Source: Lachnospiraceae bacterium (lineage in GTDB: Bacteria; Bacillota; Clostridia; Lachnospirales; Lachnospiraceae). From it: a stretch of DNA of 64,000 bases. Of this stretch, positions 203 to 7,970 are shown in pieces. Under the pieces are notes generated by a model. The model was not told the DNA's origin. It did not search any database and worked only from the letters and a program-made list of their open reading frames with translations. The position numbers and the translations under genes were made by a program. The stretch lies in NCBI GenBank assembly GCA_017624855.1, contig JAGAMF010000009.1, positions 1-64,000 of the forward strand, read 5' to 3'. Numbering within the stretch: position 1 is the stretch's first letter; every line of letters begins with the position of its first letter.

Positions 203-388
203 AAGTATTTTTAAACACTTGAAAATTTCAGTTTGCCGAAGTGATAAAAGTATGTACTTTTTCTTAATAAAATGGTATATCGTATTGGAAAGAGGATAAC
301 AAATTTATATTCGCACTGCTCGGCACACCGCAGCACAGGCAGCGATTAATAATAAATAATGATTTAAAAATGTAATATTAAATCAAAA

Positions 389-421
389 ACTCCTATGCAT
401 ATTTTGCATAGGAGTTTTTTA
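389..421 (+). terminator. Rho-independent terminator
   Basis: A perfect 11-bp stem (389-399 with 405-415), a 5-nt loop and a run of T form a textbook intrinsic terminator. It closes the hydrolase transcript and insulates the EAL/CARF operon promoter directly downstream. Between 203 and 388 I see no gene. Confidence 0.85.
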
Positions 422-429
422 TATTTCGT

Positions 430-458
430 TTGATATACATATCAAGCTTTGATATAAT
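430..458 (+). promoter_or_regulatory. Sigma-A promoter overlapped by a palindromic operator-like site
   Basis: TTGATA (430-435), a 17-bp spacer and TATAAT (453-458) form a near-consensus vegetative promoter about 40 bases before the EAL gene. The -35 box lies inside a perfect inverted repeat, TTGATAT-AC-ATATCAA (430-445). A third copy of the half site, TTGATAT, runs into the -10 box at 449-455. A repressor bound there would block RNA polymerase. The regulator is not identifiable from the window. Confidence 0.7.
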
Positions 459-498
459 TTTTAACAGGAGTAAATAAGAAATATAAGGCGGTATAAAA

Positions 499-2505
499 AT
501 GAGCAAATCAAAAGAAAAGCGAATTAAAAGATTAAAGAGAAAGCACATATGGCCTTCCATTGTGGGTTTGGCTTGTATGATGTTTATATTTGCGGTGCTT
601 TTAGGACTTATTTTGTCCGTGTCGATGGTAGATGTAGTACATAGAAAACTAAATATGGGAATGGAGCATGCTCAAGATATTGCAGCTTTGTATGTGGATT
701 ATTCAGAGGAGGAAAGTGAAGGAAATCTTTGGATAGAACAGACTGTTTTAAATTACATGGAATTTTCCGCTGAAACAGAAGCGGTGGTTCTTTTGGATGA
801 ACAATATGAAACTGTTTGGGCCGGTGGGACTGCATTTCCTAATATAAAAGAGATGCAAACCATTGAAATGTTTGGCAAAGATGCAAATACCGAAATGCAG
901 GTAATTATTGAAGAAGACCGGTATAATATTTTTAAATTTGAAAATGAAATGGTGGAAATAGACGATGATTTTATAAGCCATATTGATTTTTCCGAGATGT
1001 TGGCGGAAGAAGAGTTGTCAAATGAAGAAGGATTTATTGGAAAAATTGATTTTAAAATCTGGTATGTAATTCCGGTAGAAGGCTACAATGTATGCGTATT
1101 GTCGGTCATTAATATTTATGGTTACGACTTAATGATGCTTGTGGTCTGCGCTGTTATGTTTGTTATTTTTACCGGTATCTTTGTAATATATTATTTGATT
1201 TCTTTTTTCAGCCTTATTTTGGGTATGCATAAAACCACCAAACTTATTTATACCGATATGATTACCGGTGGTCATAACTGGTTGTATTTCATAAAAAAGG
1301 GCAATCAGTTATTGAAACGAAATCGTTCGGGTAAAAGACATTATGCTATGGTGCATTTAAAATTGCGTAAATATCGTAGTTTTTGTACTTGTTTTGGCGT
1401 CCGTGAAGCAGAAGAGTTGACGGAAAAGTTTTATGGTGTTCTTAAAAAATATATGAAAAAGCATGAAACTTTTGCGCTTCATGAGAATGCGGAGTTTGGC
1501 TTATTGGTTACTTACGCGGATGTGGATGAATTGGTTTCCCGTATCAAATCATGGGAAAAAGCATTGGATGCGGTTTTGCCCGGCATTAAATTACGGTTTG
1601 TTAGCGGCGTATATTTGGTAGAACCGAAAGAATTGGATGTTGATTTGTTGTATAACAATGCTCTGCTTGCCGGTGAAATGTCAGGCGAAGATGCTGAAAC
1701 CAATATTGCATTTTACAATATTGAAATGAATAAGCAGAGATTGTGGGAGCGTAAAGTGGAAGACGATATGGAACGCGCTCTTGCAAATAAGGAGTTTAAA
1801 GTTTACTTGCAGCCTAAAATCAGTACCGGTGAAGAAAAGCTTGCCGGTGCAGAGGCTTTGGTGAGATGGATTCATCCTACGGAAGGCTTTATTCCGCCCA
1901 ACAAATTTATTCCAATCTTTGAACAAAACGGTTTTATTTTAAAATTGGATGATTATATGCTGGAAGAAATAGCCCGACAGCAGGCAGAATGGATTGCACA
2001 GGGAAAGAATATTGTTCCTATTTCGGTGAATGTGTCCAGAGCACATTTTACAAGAGAAGATTTGGCAGAGCACATCGTTGGCATTGTAGATAAATATAAA
2101 GTGCCCCATAGCGTTATTGAGTTGGAATTGACGGAAAGTGCTTTCTTTGATGATAAGCAAACATTATTGAATACGGTAAAAAGCTTGCGCGAAGCAGGTT
2201 TTCCGGTATCCATGGATGATTTCGGCGCCGGTTATTCTTCGTTGAACTCCTTAAAAGAAATGCATTTGGATGTTCTTAAAATAGATGCGGATTTCTTCCG
2301 TGGAGTAGAAGAAGAAAAACGAGGCATGCTGATTGTTTCGGAAGTAATTGATTTGGCTAAAAAGCTTGATATGAAAATTGTGGCAGAAGGTATTGAAAAC
2401 AAAGAACAGGTTGATTTTCTGACAGAACTGGAATGTGATCTGATTCAAGGGTATTTCTTTGCAAAGCCTATGCCCATCAGCGAATTTGAAGAAAAATATA
2501 ATTAG
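499..2505 (+). CDS. Membrane c-di-GMP phosphodiesterase (degenerate GGDEF-EAL)
   Basis: This is a 668-residue membrane protein that probably hydrolyses c-di-GMP to pGpG. A first membrane helix lies at about 17-42, an extracytoplasmic region of about 160 residues follows (no family recognised), and a second helix lies at about 206-240. A GGDEF-like domain (about 245-410) has lost its signature, reading ENAEFGLLV where GGDEF should stand, so cyclase activity is unlikely. The EAL domain (about 420-668) looks intact: EAL at E452, N511 in SVNVSR, E543 in ELTES, D573-D574 in DDFGAG, K594 and E630 in AEGIE. The gene is first in the operon. Its stop is only 18 bases from the next start, and both starts are preceded by a similar GGCGGTATAA ribosome-binding region. 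Activity is inferred from conserved residues. Confidence 0.85.
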   Translation: MSKSKEKRIKRLKRKHIWPSIVGLACMMFIFAVLLGLILSVSMVDVVHRKLNMGMEHAQDIAALYVDYSEEESEGNLWIEQTVLNYMEFSAETEAVVLLDEQYETVWAGGTAFPNIKEMQTIEMFGKDANTEMQVIIEEDRYNIFKFENEMVEIDDDFISHIDFSEMLAEEELSNEEGFIGKIDFKIWYVIPVEGYNVCVLSVINIYGYDLMMLVVCAVMFVIFTGIFVIYYLISFFSLILGMHKTTKLIYTDMITGGHNWLYFIKKGNQLLKRNRSGKRHYAMVHLKLRKYRSFCTCFGVREAEELTEKFYGVLKKYMKKHETFALHENAEFGLLVTYADVDELVSRIKSWEKALDAVLPGIKLRFVSGVYLVEPKELDVDLLYNNALLAGEMSGEDAETNIAFYNIEMNKQRLWERKVEDDMERALANKEFKVYLQPKISTGEEKLAGAEALVRWIHPTEGFIPPNKFIPIFEQNGFILKLDDYMLEEIARQQAEWIAQGKNIVPISVNVSRAHFTREDLAEHIVGIVDKYKVPHSVIELELTESAFFDDKQTLLNTVKSLREAGFPVSMDDFGAGYSSLNSLKEMHLDVLKIDADFFRGVEEEKRGMLIVSEVIDLAKKLDMKIVAEGIENKEQVDFLTELECDLIQGYFFAKPMPISEFEEKYN

Positions 2506-2523
2506 GAACGGCGGTATAAGATA

Positions 2524-5358
2524 ATGTCGACAGTAAAAGAGAAAGAAAAAAATATATTGATTCTTAGTATGAGCACTTTACATCCCAATATGGAACTTTC
2601 TCATTACTATGGTGAGGGCGTAAACGGTGATTATCGTTTTGACGGAGTGAGCCAGTTAGAGGCAGGAACCAAATATTTACTTCACTATTTGGCGGATAAA
2701 GGACAAAAAATCCATCGCATTATTGTGTTGAATACATGTCAAACCCATGGCGAGGATGCAACAAAGTGGGATGTAACAAGGTTAGCGCCCTATCTTCATG
2801 AAGCTGAGAGTCTGAACGCGGCCGGCTTTTATGAGAAGCGTATCAGAGAGTATCTTCAGTTCGGAGATAAATTTGTTGATCCGGAAATGTTTTTACGAGA
2901 TGCGGGAGTGAACGAAGAACTTGCGGCTTCGATTCGTGATTATATTAAGTTGGATTCCTTTTCTGATGTGGAATATAACAATGCCAAGAGTTTGGTTGAT
3001 GGAGCAGAGAAAGATGTTTTTGATGCAGAGTTTAAAAAATATGTAGAGGATAAGAATAGAATAATTAAAGAGGAATGCCTTTCTGCTCTGGTCAGATATA
3101 CAAATAATGCAGGTGCAAAAAATATTGCCTTGGAAGAGGTTATTAAAAATTACGAAATTCAGGTGGCAAATGCATCAGGAGCAATCGAAAAAGAAAAGAG
3201 AGCAATTTCTGCTTTTATCAAAGAATATATTTATACTTTTTTAAATACTCATGACCATTTTAAGCATAAAAAAGCAGACAACCGAAAGGCATTGGAATTG
3301 TTATATCCGCAGGTGCCGGCTGAGTTATTTAAGCATATTGCGGTTGAATATAAAAATGCTGACGGCAAATATATGAAAGATGAAACAACGGTAAAAATGC
3401 TGTGCGATGATTTGTTGGAGCTGAAAGGAACCGCAGAGAATCTTCATGTGTATATTGACAGCCAGGGCGGTGATAGAACTTTTATACATACGGTAAATGC
3501 GGCAATTGATTTGCTTAGTAATCGTAATGTGACAGTAGAAGAAATTATTGCCACGAATTTTAGTCGGGACAAACTAATCAATAAAGTCCGCTTTGTAACG
3601 AAAGATTATGCAATTACGGATTTGGGCGCCGGTATGAAAGCATTCCTTCGTTATGGTAAGGCAGAGGAGTTGCTTAGTTATTTGGATAAAAAAGGCTTGG
3701 GCGAGAGCGCAAATGAAAAAAAGTTAATCGATATTATTACGGGTATTGATGAAAGTATTCAGGTTTCAAATCCGGTAGGTTTATATGATTATCTTAACGA
3801 GTTAAAAACACATCCTGAGTTATTGGATGAATCCGGTTATTGTGATGTGAATATTAAAATAGTAGTAGAGGATATAAAAAGGGATTATGCCCGACTGTTG
3901 GATCGAGACAGTGATATCGTAGATGTAATCGAGTGGCTTTGCAAGAAGTCTCTTATGATACAAACTCTCACTTTTATTGAAGATAAGATGCCGGGGTATA
4001 TTGTGGGAGATTCTCGGATTATTCGTTTGGTGCATTCCTATGAATCGGATTATGCTGCGCTGGTTGCAAACGGATGGAAGAAAAATGTTGAAAATCGACT
4101 TGCAAACGGTTTTATTAGGGAAATTAACGGAAATCTTTTGGAATGGGATAAAAAAGAATATATGAAATATGCGCCGAAAATTCTTTTGCGTACATATTTG
4201 AATGCACATTTTGAAGAGATTGCTCCCAAGGTGAATTTGGCATCTTTACAAACGAATATCGACGAAAAATCTACTTTGTGGAAGCCTTGCATTATGTCTA
4301 TGCCGGTAGATGTCTTGTTTAAAAAATATAATGCAGATATGGGGTTGAATTTGCAATATGCTGCGTTTTGCAGCAAACATAAAGTACCTCAATATGCAAC
4401 GGTAAGAGAATTGGTAGAGGAAACCAAAAAGAATGATATTGTTGCGGGACGAATCAGTTTCCGTCCGGACAAATTATTTAATGAAACAGTAGTCGCTTTT
4501 TTGGAAAAAACATATAAATCCGGTGATAAGCGATTATATGAAAGTTATGTATCTGCTACAATGGATTATATTTCTTCCGGTAAAATGTACACGAGCGGTG
4601 ATAAAAATATCGTTATCGATTTGTTGATGGATACAATATTTATACAGGCAATGACAGATGTGAAAAACGGAAAGAAAGCTAATTCCACCACATATGAAGA
4701 TGCTTGTGAATTTATGAAGCTGTTGGACATAGGTGAGAATACAGATTTTTCTGATGCGATACAAAGTGATGATAAAGTGTATTACAAAATATTGAGAATA
4801 TTGATAGAGGATTATCAGTGTTGTGTTAATCATAAGGAATTCTCTATAGAAGATTATGTGGCAACTAAGACTGTAGATTTGGGACAACGACTTTCCGATT
4901 TGGCAGAGGAATTGTCAGATGCTTCGCTTTCGGATGAAGAAGCAATTGAGAAATATGTAGAATACAGAGATGTAGCAGTTAATTATGAGCATAACAGCCT
5001 GTTTAAGGAGCAGTCCGCTTTGTATGAAAATCCGCTTTTTTATGCAGAAGAATTGGGCGGAGAATTTTTGGAAGTATATAAAAATAACAGTGTGTTTTTG
5101 TATGATGAAAACTATTTCTATCAAACCGTTGCAGGACTTCGTGATGCTCATAAATTGGGAGACGATATCGACTTGGATGCGATTCATATTTCCCAAAGCG
5201 TTGATCGAAGAAAGTTGGAAAGATTTCTTTTGTTGCATAAGGCATTGAAAAACGAACGAAACAACACAAACCATGCTTCGGAAAAAAGTTTGCGACTTCC
5301 TCTGTGGGTGGTAAAACGAATGATTTACCTTTATATTGATTTGGCTAGGGAATTGTAA
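2524..5358 (+). CDS. Large divergent CARF-like protein with C-terminal HEPN-type motif
   Basis: This 944-residue protein is not one I recognise by name. Its ends look like a CARF-HEPN ribonuclease. The N terminus has a Rossmann-like strand NILILSMSTLHPN and then RIIVLNTCQTHG. A helical stretch of about 240 residues follows before the strand LHVYIDSQGGDRTF (D312, G315, G316, R318), which sits where the DxTHG motif lies in TM1812/Csx1 proteins. After it come a DLGAGM segment and an FLRYGKAEELLSYL helix, also in the TM1812 order. The last 35 residues hold RNNTNH (R912 to H917), an Rx4H motif like the HEPN RNase site. The middle (about 380-880) is helical and unassigned. By analogy it would bind a cyclic oligonucleotide and cut RNA; ligand and activity are inference. 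It lies between the EAL gene and the MYG1-family gene. Confidence 0.65.
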   Translation: MSTVKEKEKNILILSMSTLHPNMELSHYYGEGVNGDYRFDGVSQLEAGTKYLLHYLADKGQKIHRIIVLNTCQTHGEDATKWDVTRLAPYLHEAESLNAAGFYEKRIREYLQFGDKFVDPEMFLRDAGVNEELAASIRDYIKLDSFSDVEYNNAKSLVDGAEKDVFDAEFKKYVEDKNRIIKEECLSALVRYTNNAGAKNIALEEVIKNYEIQVANASGAIEKEKRAISAFIKEYIYTFLNTHDHFKHKKADNRKALELLYPQVPAELFKHIAVEYKNADGKYMKDETTVKMLCDDLLELKGTAENLHVYIDSQGGDRTFIHTVNAAIDLLSNRNVTVEEIIATNFSRDKLINKVRFVTKDYAITDLGAGMKAFLRYGKAEELLSYLDKKGLGESANEKKLIDIITGIDESIQVSNPVGLYDYLNELKTHPELLDESGYCDVNIKIVVEDIKRDYARLLDRDSDIVDVIEWLCKKSLMIQTLTFIEDKMPGYIVGDSRIIRLVHSYESDYAALVANGWKKNVENRLANGFIREINGNLLEWDKKEYMKYAPKILLRTYLNAHFEEIAPKVNLASLQTNIDEKSTLWKPCIMSMPVDVLFKKYNADMGLNLQYAAFCSKHKVPQYATVRELVEETKKNDIVAGRISFRPDKLFNETVVAFLEKTYKSGDKRLYESYVSATMDYISSGKMYTSGDKNIVIDLLMDTIFIQAMTDVKNGKKANSTTYEDACEFMKLLDIGENTDFSDAIQSDDKVYYKILRILIEDYQCCVNHKEFSIEDYVATKTVDLGQRLSDLAEELSDASLSDEEAIEKYVEYRDVAVNYEHNSLFKEQSALYENPLFYAEELGGEFLEVYKNNSVFLYDENYFYQTVAGLRDAHKLGDDIDLDAIHISQSVDRRKLERFLLLHKALKNERNNTNHASEKSLRLPLWVVKRMIYLYIDLAREL

Positions 5359-5387
5359 AAATCATGCAGATGTAGAGAGGTGTCATT

Positions 5388-6227
5388 ATGAATACGGATA
5401 TTGCAAAAATAAACAAAGCGTTTACTCATGCCGGCTGTTTTCATGCCGACGATGTGTTTGCAACAGCTTTGCTTTTGTATTTGAATCCTGAAATAGAAGT
5501 GATAAGAGGATTTCTGGTGCCGGAAAATTTTGACGGTATTGTTTATGATATCGGATTTGGTGAGTTTGATCATCATCAGAAAGACAGAAGAGTTCGTGAA
5601 AATGGCGTGCCTTACGGAGCTTTCGGGCTTTTATGGGAGGCTTTCGGTAAGTTGATTCTTGATGCGGAAGATGCTAAGGCATTTGATGAGGAATTCGTAC
5701 AGAAGTTGGATTACACCGACAATATCGGAGAGATGAACCCCATGTCGGCGGCGATAAATGCTATGAATGCCAACTGGGACGAAGCGGACAGCGAAGGCTG
5801 TTTTAATGCTGCGGTAGAATTGGCGGAAACTATATTAAAGCGCTTTTTTATGATGTACAGGTCGGCGCAGAAAGCAAAGGAAGCCGTTGAAAGCAAAATA
5901 ACGAACAGTCCGGTTCTTGTGTTGGATGCATTTTTGCCTTGGAAGGATGCGGTAGATGGCAAAGCAATTGATTATGTAATTTTCCCTTCTACAAGAGGCG
6001 GATACAACATTCAGGCTGTGCCTTTGAATAAGAATACCATTGAATTGAAAAAAGCGTTTCCGGAAAGTTGGAGATGTGCAACAAAGGATGAACTGGTGGC
6101 GCAGACAGGAATTGAATCATTTTCATTCTGTCATGCATCGGGATTTTTATGCGCTACGGATACTTTGGAAGATGCGTTGAAAGTGGCGGAAGCTGCATTG
6201 AAATATCATGATAATAAAGATGAATAA
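5388..6227 (+). CDS. MYG1-family (UPF0160) DHH-type metal hydrolase
   Basis: This 279-residue protein matches the MYG1/UPF0160 family, part of the DHH phosphoesterase superfamily. Visible metal-site motifs are THAGCFHADDV (H14, H19, D21, D22), YDIGFGEFDHH (D54, D61, H62, H63) and TDNIGEMN (D111). Eukaryotic MYG1 has been reported as a 3'-5' RNA exonuclease, and other DHH proteins cleave short oligonucleotides or cyclic dinucleotides. It is somewhat shorter than eukaryotic MYG1 but appears complete. A GAGAGG ribosome binding site precedes the ATG. It lies 29 bases after the large CARF-like gene and 39 before the second CARF-HEPN gene, so a shared role is likely: either RNA decay with the two putative RNases, or removal of their activating oligonucleotide. 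The family call is firm; the role is inference. Confidence 0.8.
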   Translation: MNTDIAKINKAFTHAGCFHADDVFATALLLYLNPEIEVIRGFLVPENFDGIVYDIGFGEFDHHQKDRRVRENGVPYGAFGLLWEAFGKLILDAEDAKAFDEEFVQKLDYTDNIGEMNPMSAAINAMNANWDEADSEGCFNAAVELAETILKRFFMMYRSAQKAKEAVESKITNSPVLVLDAFLPWKDAVDGKAIDYVIFPSTRGGYNIQAVPLNKNTIELKKAFPESWRCATKDELVAQTGIESFSFCHASGFLCATDTLEDALKVAEAALKYHDNKDE

Positions 6228-6266
6228 GGAATTGAAATCATCAATGTACAAAAAGGAGTAAAAAGC

Positions 6267-7970
6267 ATGGCGAAGCATTTGATGTCATTTTTGGGAACTA
6301 CCGAATATAAAGAGACCGATTATTATGCGGGTGATATTTCTAATCATAAAAGCAGTAAGTATATTTTAGATGCTTTAATCGATGTGGTTTGTAAGGAATG
6401 GGACTGGAAAAACGATAAAATTTCTGTTTTTTTAACAGACAAAGCGAGAGAGAACAACTGGGAAAAAGCGGGAACCCTTAAAGATATTTTAATTTCGCGT
6501 GGGCTTGATAAAAATATATTTGGTGTTGATATTGTGGCCGGTGGCAGTGAAAACGAAATTTGGCAGATGTTTGAGCAGATGACCGAGGCGATTGGCGAGG
6601 GAGATGAGTTGTACATTGATATTACCAATTCTTTTCGTTTCGTGCCCCTCCTTATGACTTCCGTTGCCATATTTGCGAAAACGGTAAAGAATGCTGAAGT
6701 AAAAGCGGTTTATTATGGAGCTTTTGTGCCCGGAGAGAATAAAACGCCGATTCTTAATATTGCAGGTTTTGTGGATGTTATTGACTGGTCGCAGGGAAGC
6801 CAGCTGTTTGTTAAAACCGGTAATATTGAGGCTATCAATAATTCTGCTTTGGCTACTTTGGGAGAACATAAAAATGAAGGCGCCGAGATGGAGCGTATGA
6901 TGAAGAATCTTTTGGACATGATGAATGGTTTGGATAATTCGCAGGGGGTTGGAACTACCGGTGAGGATGAAGAAAAGATAACCATATTGAATGCTTATAA
7001 GGATTATGAATATAATAAAGTGCTTTTTATATCGAAATATAAAAACGATATAAAGATGGCACCTGTGTACAAGGTGTTAAAAGTGATTGATGAGGATGTG
7101 GAGATTTTCCGAAATGCTGCCCGTTTGGATTCGAATTTTTTGATGGGCATGTGTGCGGTGTCTTGGTACATTCGCAAAGGAAAGGCCCAGCAGGGTTTTA
7201 CGGCGTTGGATGAAACCATGAAAACATATGTATGTCAACGTTACGGTATCGACGAAATAGATTACAGTGTTCGCGAAGATACTGTGCAAAAATTGTGTCG
7301 CTATTTAAATAGAGCATTGGATAGGGGGACAAGTAAGCCGGAAAAAGAACGCCGTGAAAAAGCATATAAGAAATGGATTAATGATATCTGGAAAGAGGAT
7401 GTTTTAAGAGATTGGAAGATGAGCCGTTCGGAAGAGAAGAATGCGAATGTACCCTACACATCAAAAAATGACAGTTTGTCTACGGTAAAAGAAAATCAAA
7501 ATCTTATTGACTTTTTAGATGAGCTTTCTTATGGGGTTGAAACAGAAGAATTAATAAAAAAATATTTTAGTGAAAATATTTATCATGCTTGGAAAGAAAA
7601 AAAACGTGGCGGCTCAAAGGGAAAGGTTAATATTGAGAAAAACAAAGAAAAGTTGTGGAATTTGTTTGAAAATGGTGTTGTTGAAAAAATATTTTATGGA
7701 TTGTCGCATGAATTTACCAAGTTGAAATTAACAGTAGGCGATCAGCGTAACAGCATGAATCATTTCGGCTATACCGATAAAAAGCTTTCAGAGAAACCTT
7801 TGAAAGATTTGACAAATCATTTTGCAAATTTTGTTACAATTGTTGAAAAAGAAAACGGCGGCCAATATGTAAAAACAGATGATGATGGAATTGTGACAAA
7901 TTTGTCGGAAGATATTTTAAAAGAATTGCGTGCGCTTGTAGAGGAAGCCAAAAAGTTTGTCGAAATTTGA
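6267..7970 (+). CDS. TM1812/Csx1-like CARF-HEPN ribonuclease
   Basis: This 567-residue protein matches the TM1812 (Csx1/Csx2-like) family of CRISPR-associated CARF proteins. The N terminus reads MSFLGTTEYKETDYYAGD, the hallmark FLGT..Y start. VFLTDKARENNWEK and the segment ENEIWQMFEQM follow, then the CARF motif LYIDITNSFR (D118, T120, R124), a variant of DxTHG, and AVYYGAF. The C terminus carries QRNSMNH (R494 to H499), the Rx4H motif of HEPN RNases. Family members are activated by cyclic oligoadenylate made by Cas10 and then cleave RNA, but no cas10 or CRISPR array is visible here. AAGGAG precedes the ATG. It is the last gene of the operon and is followed by a terminator. Membership is clear; independence from CRISPR in this genome is inference. 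Confidence 0.85.
   Translation: MAKHLMSFLGTTEYKETDYYAGDISNHKSSKYILDALIDVVCKEWDWKNDKISVFLTDKARENNWEKAGTLKDILISRGLDKNIFGVDIVAGGSENEIWQMFEQMTEAIGEGDELYIDITNSFRFVPLLMTSVAIFAKTVKNAEVKAVYYGAFVPGENKTPILNIAGFVDVIDWSQGSQLFVKTGNIEAINNSALATLGEHKNEGAEMERMMKNLLDMMNGLDNSQGVGTTGEDEEKITILNAYKDYEYNKVLFISKYKNDIKMAPVYKVLKVIDEDVEIFRNAARLDSNFLMGMCAVSWYIRKGKAQQGFTALDETMKTYVCQRYGIDEIDYSVREDTVQKLCRYLNRALDRGTSKPEKERREKAYKKWINDIWKEDVLRDWKMSRSEEKNANVPYTSKNDSLSTVKENQNLIDFLDELSYGVETEELIKKYFSENIYHAWKEKKRGGSKGKVNIEKNKEKLWNLFENGVVEKIFYGLSHEFTKLKLTVGDQRNSMNHFGYTDKKLSEKPLKDLTNHFANFVTIVEKENGGQYVKTDDDGIVTNLSEDILKELRALVEEAKKFVEI

What the first reader, a model, noticed from the sequence alone, without database searches (positions are those of the whole stretch)
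430..7970. A possible stand-alone CARF-HEPN defence operon: EAL, divergent CARF-like, MYG1 and TM1812 proteins
Four closely spaced genes (gaps of 18, 29 and 39 bases) between a promoter and a terminator encode a c-di-GMP phosphodiesterase, two proteins with CARF-type features and HEPN-type Rx4H motifs, and a DHH-type hydrolase between them. CARF-HEPN proteins normally answer cyclic oligoadenylate from Cas10, but no array or cas10 is in the window. An attractive model is an RNase pair switched on by a nucleotide signal, with MYG1 removing the signal or clearing RNA ends and the EAL protein linking it to c-di-GMP. I do not know of a described system with this set.
Basis: partly seen in the sequence, partly recalled or inferred. 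Interest (0 to 1): 0.88.

Follow-up and report, generated by a model that had tools for sequence, protein, structure and literature searches.

The report
CARF RNases with MYG1, without Cas10
Two signal-activated RNA-cutting immune proteins flank a MYG1-type nuclease in a Lachnospiraceae genome; related genes sit inside type III CRISPR loci elsewhere, so this looks like a CRISPR signalling module standing apart from its signal maker, with MYG1 as an apparently unreported partner.

Summary
Genes 2 and 4 are CARF-HEPN proteins, gene 3 is MYG1 (PF03690, DHH intact), gene 1 an EAL phosphodiesterase. Unexpected result: MYG1 recurs in type III CRISPR loci. Of 106 other distinct MYG1 loci, 10 lie in type III loci (7 III-D), in 8 of them within 81 bases of a cas6, cas10, cas7 or CARF/Csm6 gene. 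One carries a gene-2 homologue and the MYG1 that is the window's sister in the tree. Some MYG1s carry a Csx20-like domain; Csx20 is a proven cA4 ring nuclease. Of nine other family genomes with gene-2-like proteins, eight have Cas10-type hits. The window's genome shows no Cas10, RAMP or Cas1 but is 74.5% complete. Best reading: a type III signalling cassette (two RNases plus a MYG1 clean-up enzyme) detached from Cas10. The EAL link and a conserved Cas10-free system are not supported.

The parts
327..361 (+). remnant of the 3' end of the gene that lies before comM in sister species (labelled ppdK by recall); marks the junction of a variable locus
   Evidence: blastn from 330 to 359, 360 or 367 against the 3' end of that gene in L142, L143 and L144 at 93-95%; frame reads TAAQAAINNK*
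385..419 (.). strong stem-loop, terminator-like on both strands
   Evidence: 15-pair stem with T run
430..458 (+). promoter-like site TTGATA-17-TATAAT with TG before the second hexamer
   Evidence: consensus scan, 11 of 12; the scan as a whole is not above chance
499..2505 (+). gene 1: EAL-type c-di-GMP phosphodiesterase with a degenerate GGDEF domain; probably a neighbour rather than part of the CARF-MYG1 module
   Evidence: PF00563 3.7e-68; motifs; best relative, in G027, lies elsewhere; no EAL match in 119 other stretches around MYG1
2524..5358 (+). gene 2: long CARF-HEPN protein, 944 aa, C-terminal RNNTNH
   Evidence: PADLOC CARF-HEPN 2.3e-22; homologue in III-D locus L230, 30% over 717 aa, E 4e-74
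5388..6227 (+). gene 3: MYG1-family (UPF0160) DHH nuclease, catalytic motifs intact
   Evidence: PF03690 2.8e-40; alignment; PDB chain named MYG1 exonuclease 5.5e-27 by profile
6267..7970 (+). gene 4: Csx1/TM1812-like CARF-HEPN protein, 567 aa, RNSMNH
   Evidence: TIGR02221 5.4e-26 above cut-off; PADLOC 9.5e-77; 28% over 388 aa to a CARF-HEPN of III-D locus L225

Best explanation
Genes 2-4 are an ancillary signalling cassette of a type III CRISPR system, standing apart from any Cas10 that can be seen in this incomplete genome. Inferred working: a cyclic oligoadenylate binds the CARF domains of the two CARF-HEPN proteins and switches on their HEPN RNases; MYG1, a DHH-family nuclease, removes what is left of the signal (most likely linear oligoadenylates after ring opening) and short RNA ends, so the alarm stops. 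The signal comes either from a Cas10 in the missing quarter of the genome or from one that this lineage has lost. Shown here: gene identities, intact motifs, recurrent placement of MYG1 and of gene-2-like proteins in type III loci, MYG1 proteins with a Csx20-like domain. Inferred: ligand, RNase activity, substrate of MYG1, function in trans. The EAL gene is most likely a hitch-hiker that may share the promoter.
For: MYG1 in 10 of 106 other distinct MYG1 loci lies in a type III locus, in 8 of those 10 within 81 bases of or overlapping a cas6, cas10, cas7 or CARF/Csm6 gene (subtype and gene labels by PADLOC in part, otherwise by phmmer to proteins so labelled). In the family sample 3 of 38 MYG1 genes are near a type III Cas10, about 0.03 expected for 10 kb on each side and 3-Mb genomes. 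Locus L230 carries a gene-2 homologue, a Cas10d (3.1e-87) and the MYG1 that is sister to the window's (SH-aLRT 84; 97 for a set of 12 in which 6 of 11 others are type III-linked). Gene-2-like proteins in 10 of 397 family genomes; 8 of the 9 others have Cas10-type hits, Fisher 1.8e-7. MYG1 proteins with a C-terminal Csx20-like domain (3.8e-16, 1.7e-15), Csx20 being a confirmed cA4 ring nuclease (PMC12409355, abstract and passages). NrN, a DHH-family nuclease beside a type III effector, is needed for immunity in its active form, and CRISPR-associated phosphodiesterases degrade that signal (PMC10600005, abstract and passages).
Against: No Cas10, RAMP or Cas1 found in G000, so the source of signal is missing. 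Ninety-six of 106 other MYG1 loci show no type III gene by my references in the DNA held, and 29 of 38 MYG1 genomes are not on my Cas10 list (Fisher for co-occurrence only 0.03): MYG1 clearly has other jobs. By identity and path the window's MYG1 is closest to two Butyrivibrio MYG1s (53-54%) beside sugar-metabolism genes, not to a type III one. Only 3 of 12 family-sample genomes with the fused form are on the Cas10 list. The fused Csx20-like domains lack the NHP stretch and a C-terminal segment of stand-alone Csx20, so they may not be ring nucleases. One of the eight Cas10-type genomes (G083) has a palm hit that my references did not confirm (L366). No structure or assay.
Confidence: 0.58

Rival explanations
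1. MYG1 in these loci trims the 3' ends of crRNAs, working with Cas6, and in the window is a leftover.
For: MYG1 is directly next to cas6 in L033, L202 and L211. Eukaryotic MYG1 is a 3'-5' RNA exonuclease (PMC11167044, abstract and passages). A CRISPR-associated NYN ribonuclease encoded next to cas6 is proposed to trim crRNA (PMC11346440, abstract and passages), and host exonucleases do so in S. epidermidis (PMC9762709, abstract and passages).
Against: In the window there is no cas6 or array, yet MYG1 sits between two CARF-HEPN genes; in L225, L235, L252, L257 and L260 the neighbours are CARF/Csm6, cas10 or cas7 instead. Fusion to a Csx20-like domain points to signal turnover.
Confidence: 0.17
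2. A true stand-alone defence unit: the CARF-HEPN pair answers a nucleotide signal that Cas10 does not make.
For: No Cas10, RAMP or Cas1 found in G000. CARF-HEPN proteins without cas genes in the DNA held (by my references) also occur in G409 (100% complete) and G040 (93%), neither with a Cas10 palm hit.
Against: Completeness 74.5%; 8 of 9 other genomes with gene-2-like proteins have Cas10-type hits; no second locus with the four genes; no cyclase gene in the set.
Confidence: 0.14
3. Decaying or accidental cluster: genes dropped into a variable spot between ppdK and comM, without joint function.
For: Sister species have nothing there (G006) or three other genes (G027, G001); lower G+C of genes 1, 2 and 4 (0.365-0.370 against 0.408, sd 0.019), though not of MYG1 (0.419).
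Against: All frames are open with catalytic motifs kept, gaps are short, and gene 2 and MYG1 both have relatives in one locus, L230.
Confidence: 0.08
4. EAL and MYG1 form a c-di-GMP breakdown pair: EAL makes pGpG and MYG1, like NrnA/NrnB, cleaves it.
For: DHH/DHHA1-family NrnA and NrnB degrade pGpG (PMC6256023, abstract and passages); the genes lie in one run.
Against: Gene 2 lies between them; no EAL match was seen in the 119 other stretches around MYG1 (longest-ORF selection); the EAL relative in G027 has no MYG1 beside it.
Confidence: 0.03

Closest known systems
Csx1/Csm6-type CARF-HEPN ribonucleases of type III CRISPR
   Same: CARF plus HEPN, Rx4H motif, PADLOC and (gene 4) TIGR02221 models matched
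   Different: two unlike copies together with MYG1 and no Cas10 seen; gene 2 is very long (944 aa) and below every Pfam and NCBIfam cut-off
NrN, DHH-family phosphodiesterase beside CorA in type III-B (SAM-AMP turnover; PMC10600005)
   Same: DHH-superfamily hydrolase encoded next to a type III effector, signal clean-up
   Different: MYG1 is PF03690, not NrN; partners are CARF-HEPN, not CorA; mostly III-D
Ring nuclease Csx20 (PMC12409355)
   Same: found in the same kinds of III-D locus, and a Csx20-like domain is fused to MYG1 in other genomes
   Different: the window's MYG1 has no Csx20-like domain and belongs to another enzyme family
MYG1 exonuclease of eukaryotes
   Same: PF03690, DHH motif; PDB chain named MYG1 exonuclease matched at 5.5e-27; antiviral in yeast (PMC10089162, abstract and passages)
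   Different: bacterial gene run with CARF-HEPN proteins; no CRISPR link found in the paper searches made
Csm6-2 (CARF-HEPN-CARF-HEPN, III-D; PMC11229360, passages)
   Same: long CARF-HEPN protein of III-D loci
   Different: gene 2 shows one CARF region by profile and one C-terminal RNxxNH; a second pair could not be tested by structure

Membership tests
CARF-HEPN (Csx1/Csm6-like) effector | CARF sensor domain | tested here: met
   gene 4 TIGR02221 above cut-off; gene 2 by PADLOC profiles only
CARF-HEPN (Csx1/Csm6-like) effector | HEPN domain with Rx4-6H | tested here: met
   RNNTNH and RNSMNH, conserved in homologues; one CARF-HEPN of L225 has D in place of H
CARF-HEPN (Csx1/Csm6-like) effector | RNase switched on by cyclic oligoadenylate | not testable with these tools
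   needs purified protein
type III CRISPR-Cas system | Cas10 and Cas7 (RAMP) in the genome | tested here: not met
   no Cas10d, Cas10 palm or RAMP match in G000, 74.5% complete; so not filed as a type III locus
type III CRISPR-Cas system | CRISPR array nearby and Cas1 (not universal) | tested here: not met
   no array in the window (arrays elsewhere in the genome not searched); no Cas1 in G000
MYG1 / UPF0160 | PF03690 over its length with DHH-family motifs | tested here: met
   12-271 of 279 aa to 3-318 of 318; H19, D21, D22, DHH 61-63, D108, D111
ring nuclease (Crn/Csx type) | member of a known ring nuclease family | tested here: not met
   no PADLOC match for the window's MYG1
ring nuclease (Crn/Csx type) | cleaves cyclic oligoadenylate | not testable with these tools
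   assay needed
Csm6-2 | two CARF and two HEPN domains in one chain | tested here: inconclusive

The most novel reading that the evidence does not exclude
MYG1-family DHH nucleases are an unrecognised class of type III CRISPR accessory enzyme that ends oligoadenylate signalling, alone or fused to a Csx20-like domain, recruited repeatedly in Bacillota; and the window is a detached module that keeps the RNase pair and the off-switch while taking its signal from a source other than a local Cas10.
Probability: 0.22. Interest if true: 0.85.

Novelty: new variant of a known kind. Interest (0 to 1): 0.62.

Why it matters
Type III signalling needs an off-switch, and a 2025 classification says that loci departing from the usual pattern might lead to new sensors and nucleases (PMC12669027, section 8 read). 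MYG1 is a cheap, testable candidate: said to have homologues in all taxa and antiviral in yeast (PMC10089162, abstract and passages), a known RNA exonuclease in eukaryotes, and absent by term search from the main text of three type III papers. If it acts on oligoadenylate signals, a eukaryotic antiviral exonuclease would have a bacterial counterpart in CRISPR immunity.

Tried and rejected
Genome-wide co-occurrence as the main proof: MYG1 and Cas10 overlap in 9 of 38 genomes, Fisher 0.03; too weak, so I rely on gene neighbourhood. The Cas10 list was drawn by hand (match from position 1-3 to 124 or more, E up to 3e-7; 47 of 397 genomes) because the palm model also rings for what look like GGDEF proteins; 12 of the 51 stretches of that list (50 loci plus G452:C116) had no Cas10 by my references, so 47 may be too high. 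G478 has a partial match and was left off. Six weak MYG1 genomes (E 5e-5 to 9e-4) were dropped from 44, leaving 38.

MYG1 displacing Csx20: Csx20 in 1 of 10 MYG1 type III loci against 7 of 12 III-D loci without MYG1; Fisher 0.03, or 0.07 for III-D alone. The two pools were gathered differently and stretches are cut, and only Csx20 among ring nucleases was looked for, so this is a trend. In the 51 stretches MYG1 is present in 3.

My first gene picking (longest ORF first) lost MYG1 in 22 distinct loci; I redid the screen with all ORFs and the tree with 107 rows. The counts of neighbours and of EAL and still rest on the first picking. I first called L230:1227-2012 Cas6; Pfam says DUF3658/DUF1835, so the label Cas6_L230 is wrong and is not counted. 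Labels ppdK, comM, jetD order and dprA are recalled, not from a call.

Phage origin: 20 viral contigs carry MYG1 relatives, none with Cas or CARF matches to my references in the stretch held; 1 phage record and 71 plasmid records match; not pursued. Close relatives of gene 2 in viral contigs: none.
Full report
Observation. The four ORFs, their strand and their gaps (18, 29, 39 bases) are as described. Gene 1 is an EAL protein with intact EAL motifs and a degenerate GGDEF domain. Gene 2 is found only by PADLOC CARF-HEPN profiles (2.3e-22, residues 246-502), gene 4 by TIGR02221 above its cut-off and PADLOC CARF-HEPN. Gene 3 is a full-length MYG1 protein with H19, D21, D22, D61-H62-H63, D108 and D111, which are invariant in 11 aligned MYG1s. 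The Rx4H motifs alone are weak evidence by chance, but gene 2's ERNNTNHASEK is identical in a homologue 30% identical over 717 aa.

The place. The window is the start of contig C2 of a 1.95-Mb, 74.5% complete assembly. The family is Lachnospiraceae: several of its members in the sample are identical in MYG1 to named Lachnospiraceae records. In sister species the gene before comM (ppdK by recall) is directly followed by comM (G006, about 280 bases apart) or separated from it by three other genes (G027, G001). The window keeps 30-38 bases of the ppdK 3' end at about 327-361 and then has the four genes. G+C of genes 1, 2 and 4 is about two standard deviations below the rest of the window; MYG1 is not low. 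This is a variable spot that took up a gene set.

Gene 1 is probably not part of the core. EAL proteins are many in this genus (8 matches in G000 alone), and the best relative, in G027 (57%), lies elsewhere with no CARF or MYG1 beside it. Among 120 stretches around MYG1 only the window shows an EAL match (longest-ORF selection).

Gene 2 relatives keep company with Cas10. In 145 relatives gene 2 matched G000 and 3 others; the same-genus one (G013) lies directly before cas10d in a III-D locus with cas7s, cas5, csx19, a second CARF-HEPN gene, a csx20 gene upstream and an array downstream. In 397 family genomes a two-row profile matched 10; 8 of the 9 others have Cas10-type hits, in 6 of these within the stretch held (L202, L319/L380, L320, L321, L322, L323). 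For G083 the palm hit was not confirmed by my references (L366). Exceptions exist: G409, 100% complete and without a Cas10 hit, has the protein alone (L317), and so has G040 (L027).

MYG1 is tied to type III CRISPR. Thirty-eight are shorter than 15 kb, so the count is a lower bound. Ten of 106 others lie in type III loci: G037 (III-D: MYG1-cas6-cas10d-cas7-cas5-cas7-csx19-cas7-CARF-HEPN-CARF-like), G452 (III-D: MYG1-cas6-CARF-HEPN-CARF-like-x-cas10d-cas7), G269 (III-A: MYG1-cas6-cas10-csm2-csm3-csm4-csm5-csm6), UBA7182 (III-D: CARF, CARF-HEPN, MYG1, cas10d, cas7s, CARF-HEPN, cas6), RGIG4033 (III-D: MYG1, array and cas1 fragments, gene-2 homologue, cas10d, cas7s), RUG13174 (III-A: csm3-5, array, cas1, cas2, csm6, MYG1), RUG11163 (III-D: MYG1-cas10d-cas7s-CARF), SUG17 (III-D: MYG1-csm6-cas10d-cas7s), NALB_7863_23 (III-D: cas10d-cas7-cas5-cas7-csx19-cas7-MYG1-CARF-HEPN) and RUI314 (array, csx20, cas6, x, MYG1, CARF-like; contig end, subtype open). 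Labels come from PADLOC where scanned and otherwise from phmmer to proteins so labelled. In the family sample three of 38 MYG1 genes lie near a type III Cas10; about 0.03 are expected within 10 kb in 3-Mb genomes, P 5e-6. In the reverse view MYG1 is present in 3 of 51 stretches of the Cas10 list: a minority accessory. Where III-A Cas10 has GGDD, Cas10 of eight III-D loci has AGDD, EGDD, AGDE or HGDE, so both acidic positions of the cyclase site are kept.

Descent. In a 107-row tree the window's MYG1 is sister to that of RGIG4033 (SH-aLRT 84), inside a set of 12 (97) where 6 of 11 others are type III-linked. The type III label needs 8 changes (shuffled mean 9.7, 23 of 500 as low), so recruitment probably happened more than once and clustering is modest. 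By path and identity the nearest rows are two Butyrivibrio MYG1s (53-54%) between a transaldolase and a phosphofructokinase gene. RGIG4033 is also the locus with the gene-2 homologue. A likely history is that genes 2 and 3 came from such a III-D locus; this is inference.

What MYG1 may do. MYG1 of eukaryotes is a 3'-5' RNA exonuclease (PMC11167044, abstract and passages) and antiviral in yeast, where the human gene can replace it (PMC10089162, abstract and passages). Some bacterial MYG1s, of a Roseburia/Blautia group and of G349, G423 and two other loci, carry a C-terminal extension that matches Csx20: 3.8e-16 and 1.7e-15 at best, 1.5e-4 to 8.3e-4 for three Roseburia/Blautia-group members in the same call; 13 distinct proteins at 1e-4 with a local profile. 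Csx20 cleaves cA4 to linear products (PMC12409355, abstract and passages). NrN, another DHH enzyme beside a type III effector, needs its DHH site for immunity, and CRISPR-associated phosphodiesterases degrade SAM-AMP (PMC10600005, abstract and passages). Hence the preferred reading is signal clean-up. Against it: the fused domains have lost the NHP stretch; 3 of 12 genomes with the fused form are on the Cas10 list; three loci put MYG1 next to cas6, as expected for crRNA trimming, for which NYN gives a precedent (PMC11346440, abstract and passages).

Is it stand-alone? In G000 no Cas10d, Cas10 palm, RAMP or Cas1 was found. With 74.5% completeness one missed locus is quite possible. I therefore call it detached, not proven Cas10-independent.

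In print. In the held library no paper has MYG1 with CARF and HEPN or EAL domain with CARF and HEPN; one paper, on human cell knock-outs, has MYG1 with CRISPR-associated; none since 2019 has both Csx20 and MYG1 (ranked by terms held). MYG1 and DHH do not occur in the main text of three type III papers. Makarova 2020 on CARF, Shah 2019 and Shmakov 2018 (identifiers recalled) are not held, and supplements were not read, so an earlier mention cannot be excluded.

Verdict. The finding is real and better than ordinary: its core is a type III signalling cassette away from Cas10, and it leads to MYG1 as a recurrent, apparently undescribed type III accessory gene. The kind of system is known, the partner is new. 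Interest 0.62.

Noticed in passing
L041 4971-11657 (G057; same as L276): A MYG1 gene with a weak Csx20-like domain lies directly after Wadjet jetA, jetB and jetC (PADLOC 3e-175, 3e-91, 0), where jetD would be expected (recalled order). No other screened locus has these genes.
   Followed up: partly
L201, L207, L258, L262 and the Roseburia/Blautia group: MYG1 proteins with a C-terminal Csx20-like domain; 3 of 12 such family-sample genomes are on my Cas10 list.
   Followed up: partly
L324-L343: Twenty viral contigs (about 5 to 274 kb) encode MYG1 relatives, none with Cas or CARF matches nearby.
   Followed up: partly
L107 2312-4837 (G058): An 841-aa CARF-type protein with a Csx20 match (2.6e-46) in a III-D locus: a sensor and likely ring nuclease in one chain.
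   Followed up: no
L253 3578-10001: A type I-C CRISPR locus (Cas8c, Cas7c) whose array ends about 600 bases before a MYG1-Csx20 gene.
   Followed up: no
L033 10567-12117 (G037): cas10d is split in two open pieces (one TAA in frame), so this III-D locus may be decaying or mis-sequenced.
   Followed up: no
window 487-496 and 2510-2519: Genes 1 and 2 are both preceded by the same GGCGGTATAA string just before the start codon.
   Followed up: no
L202 13943-15226; L275 9365-9904: Unassigned proteins (427 and 179 aa) inside MYG1 type III loci, no Pfam or PADLOC match.
   Followed up: partly
L317 7515-9146 (G409:C103): A lone gene-2-like CARF-HEPN protein in a 100% complete genome without a Cas10 palm hit.
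   Followed up: partly
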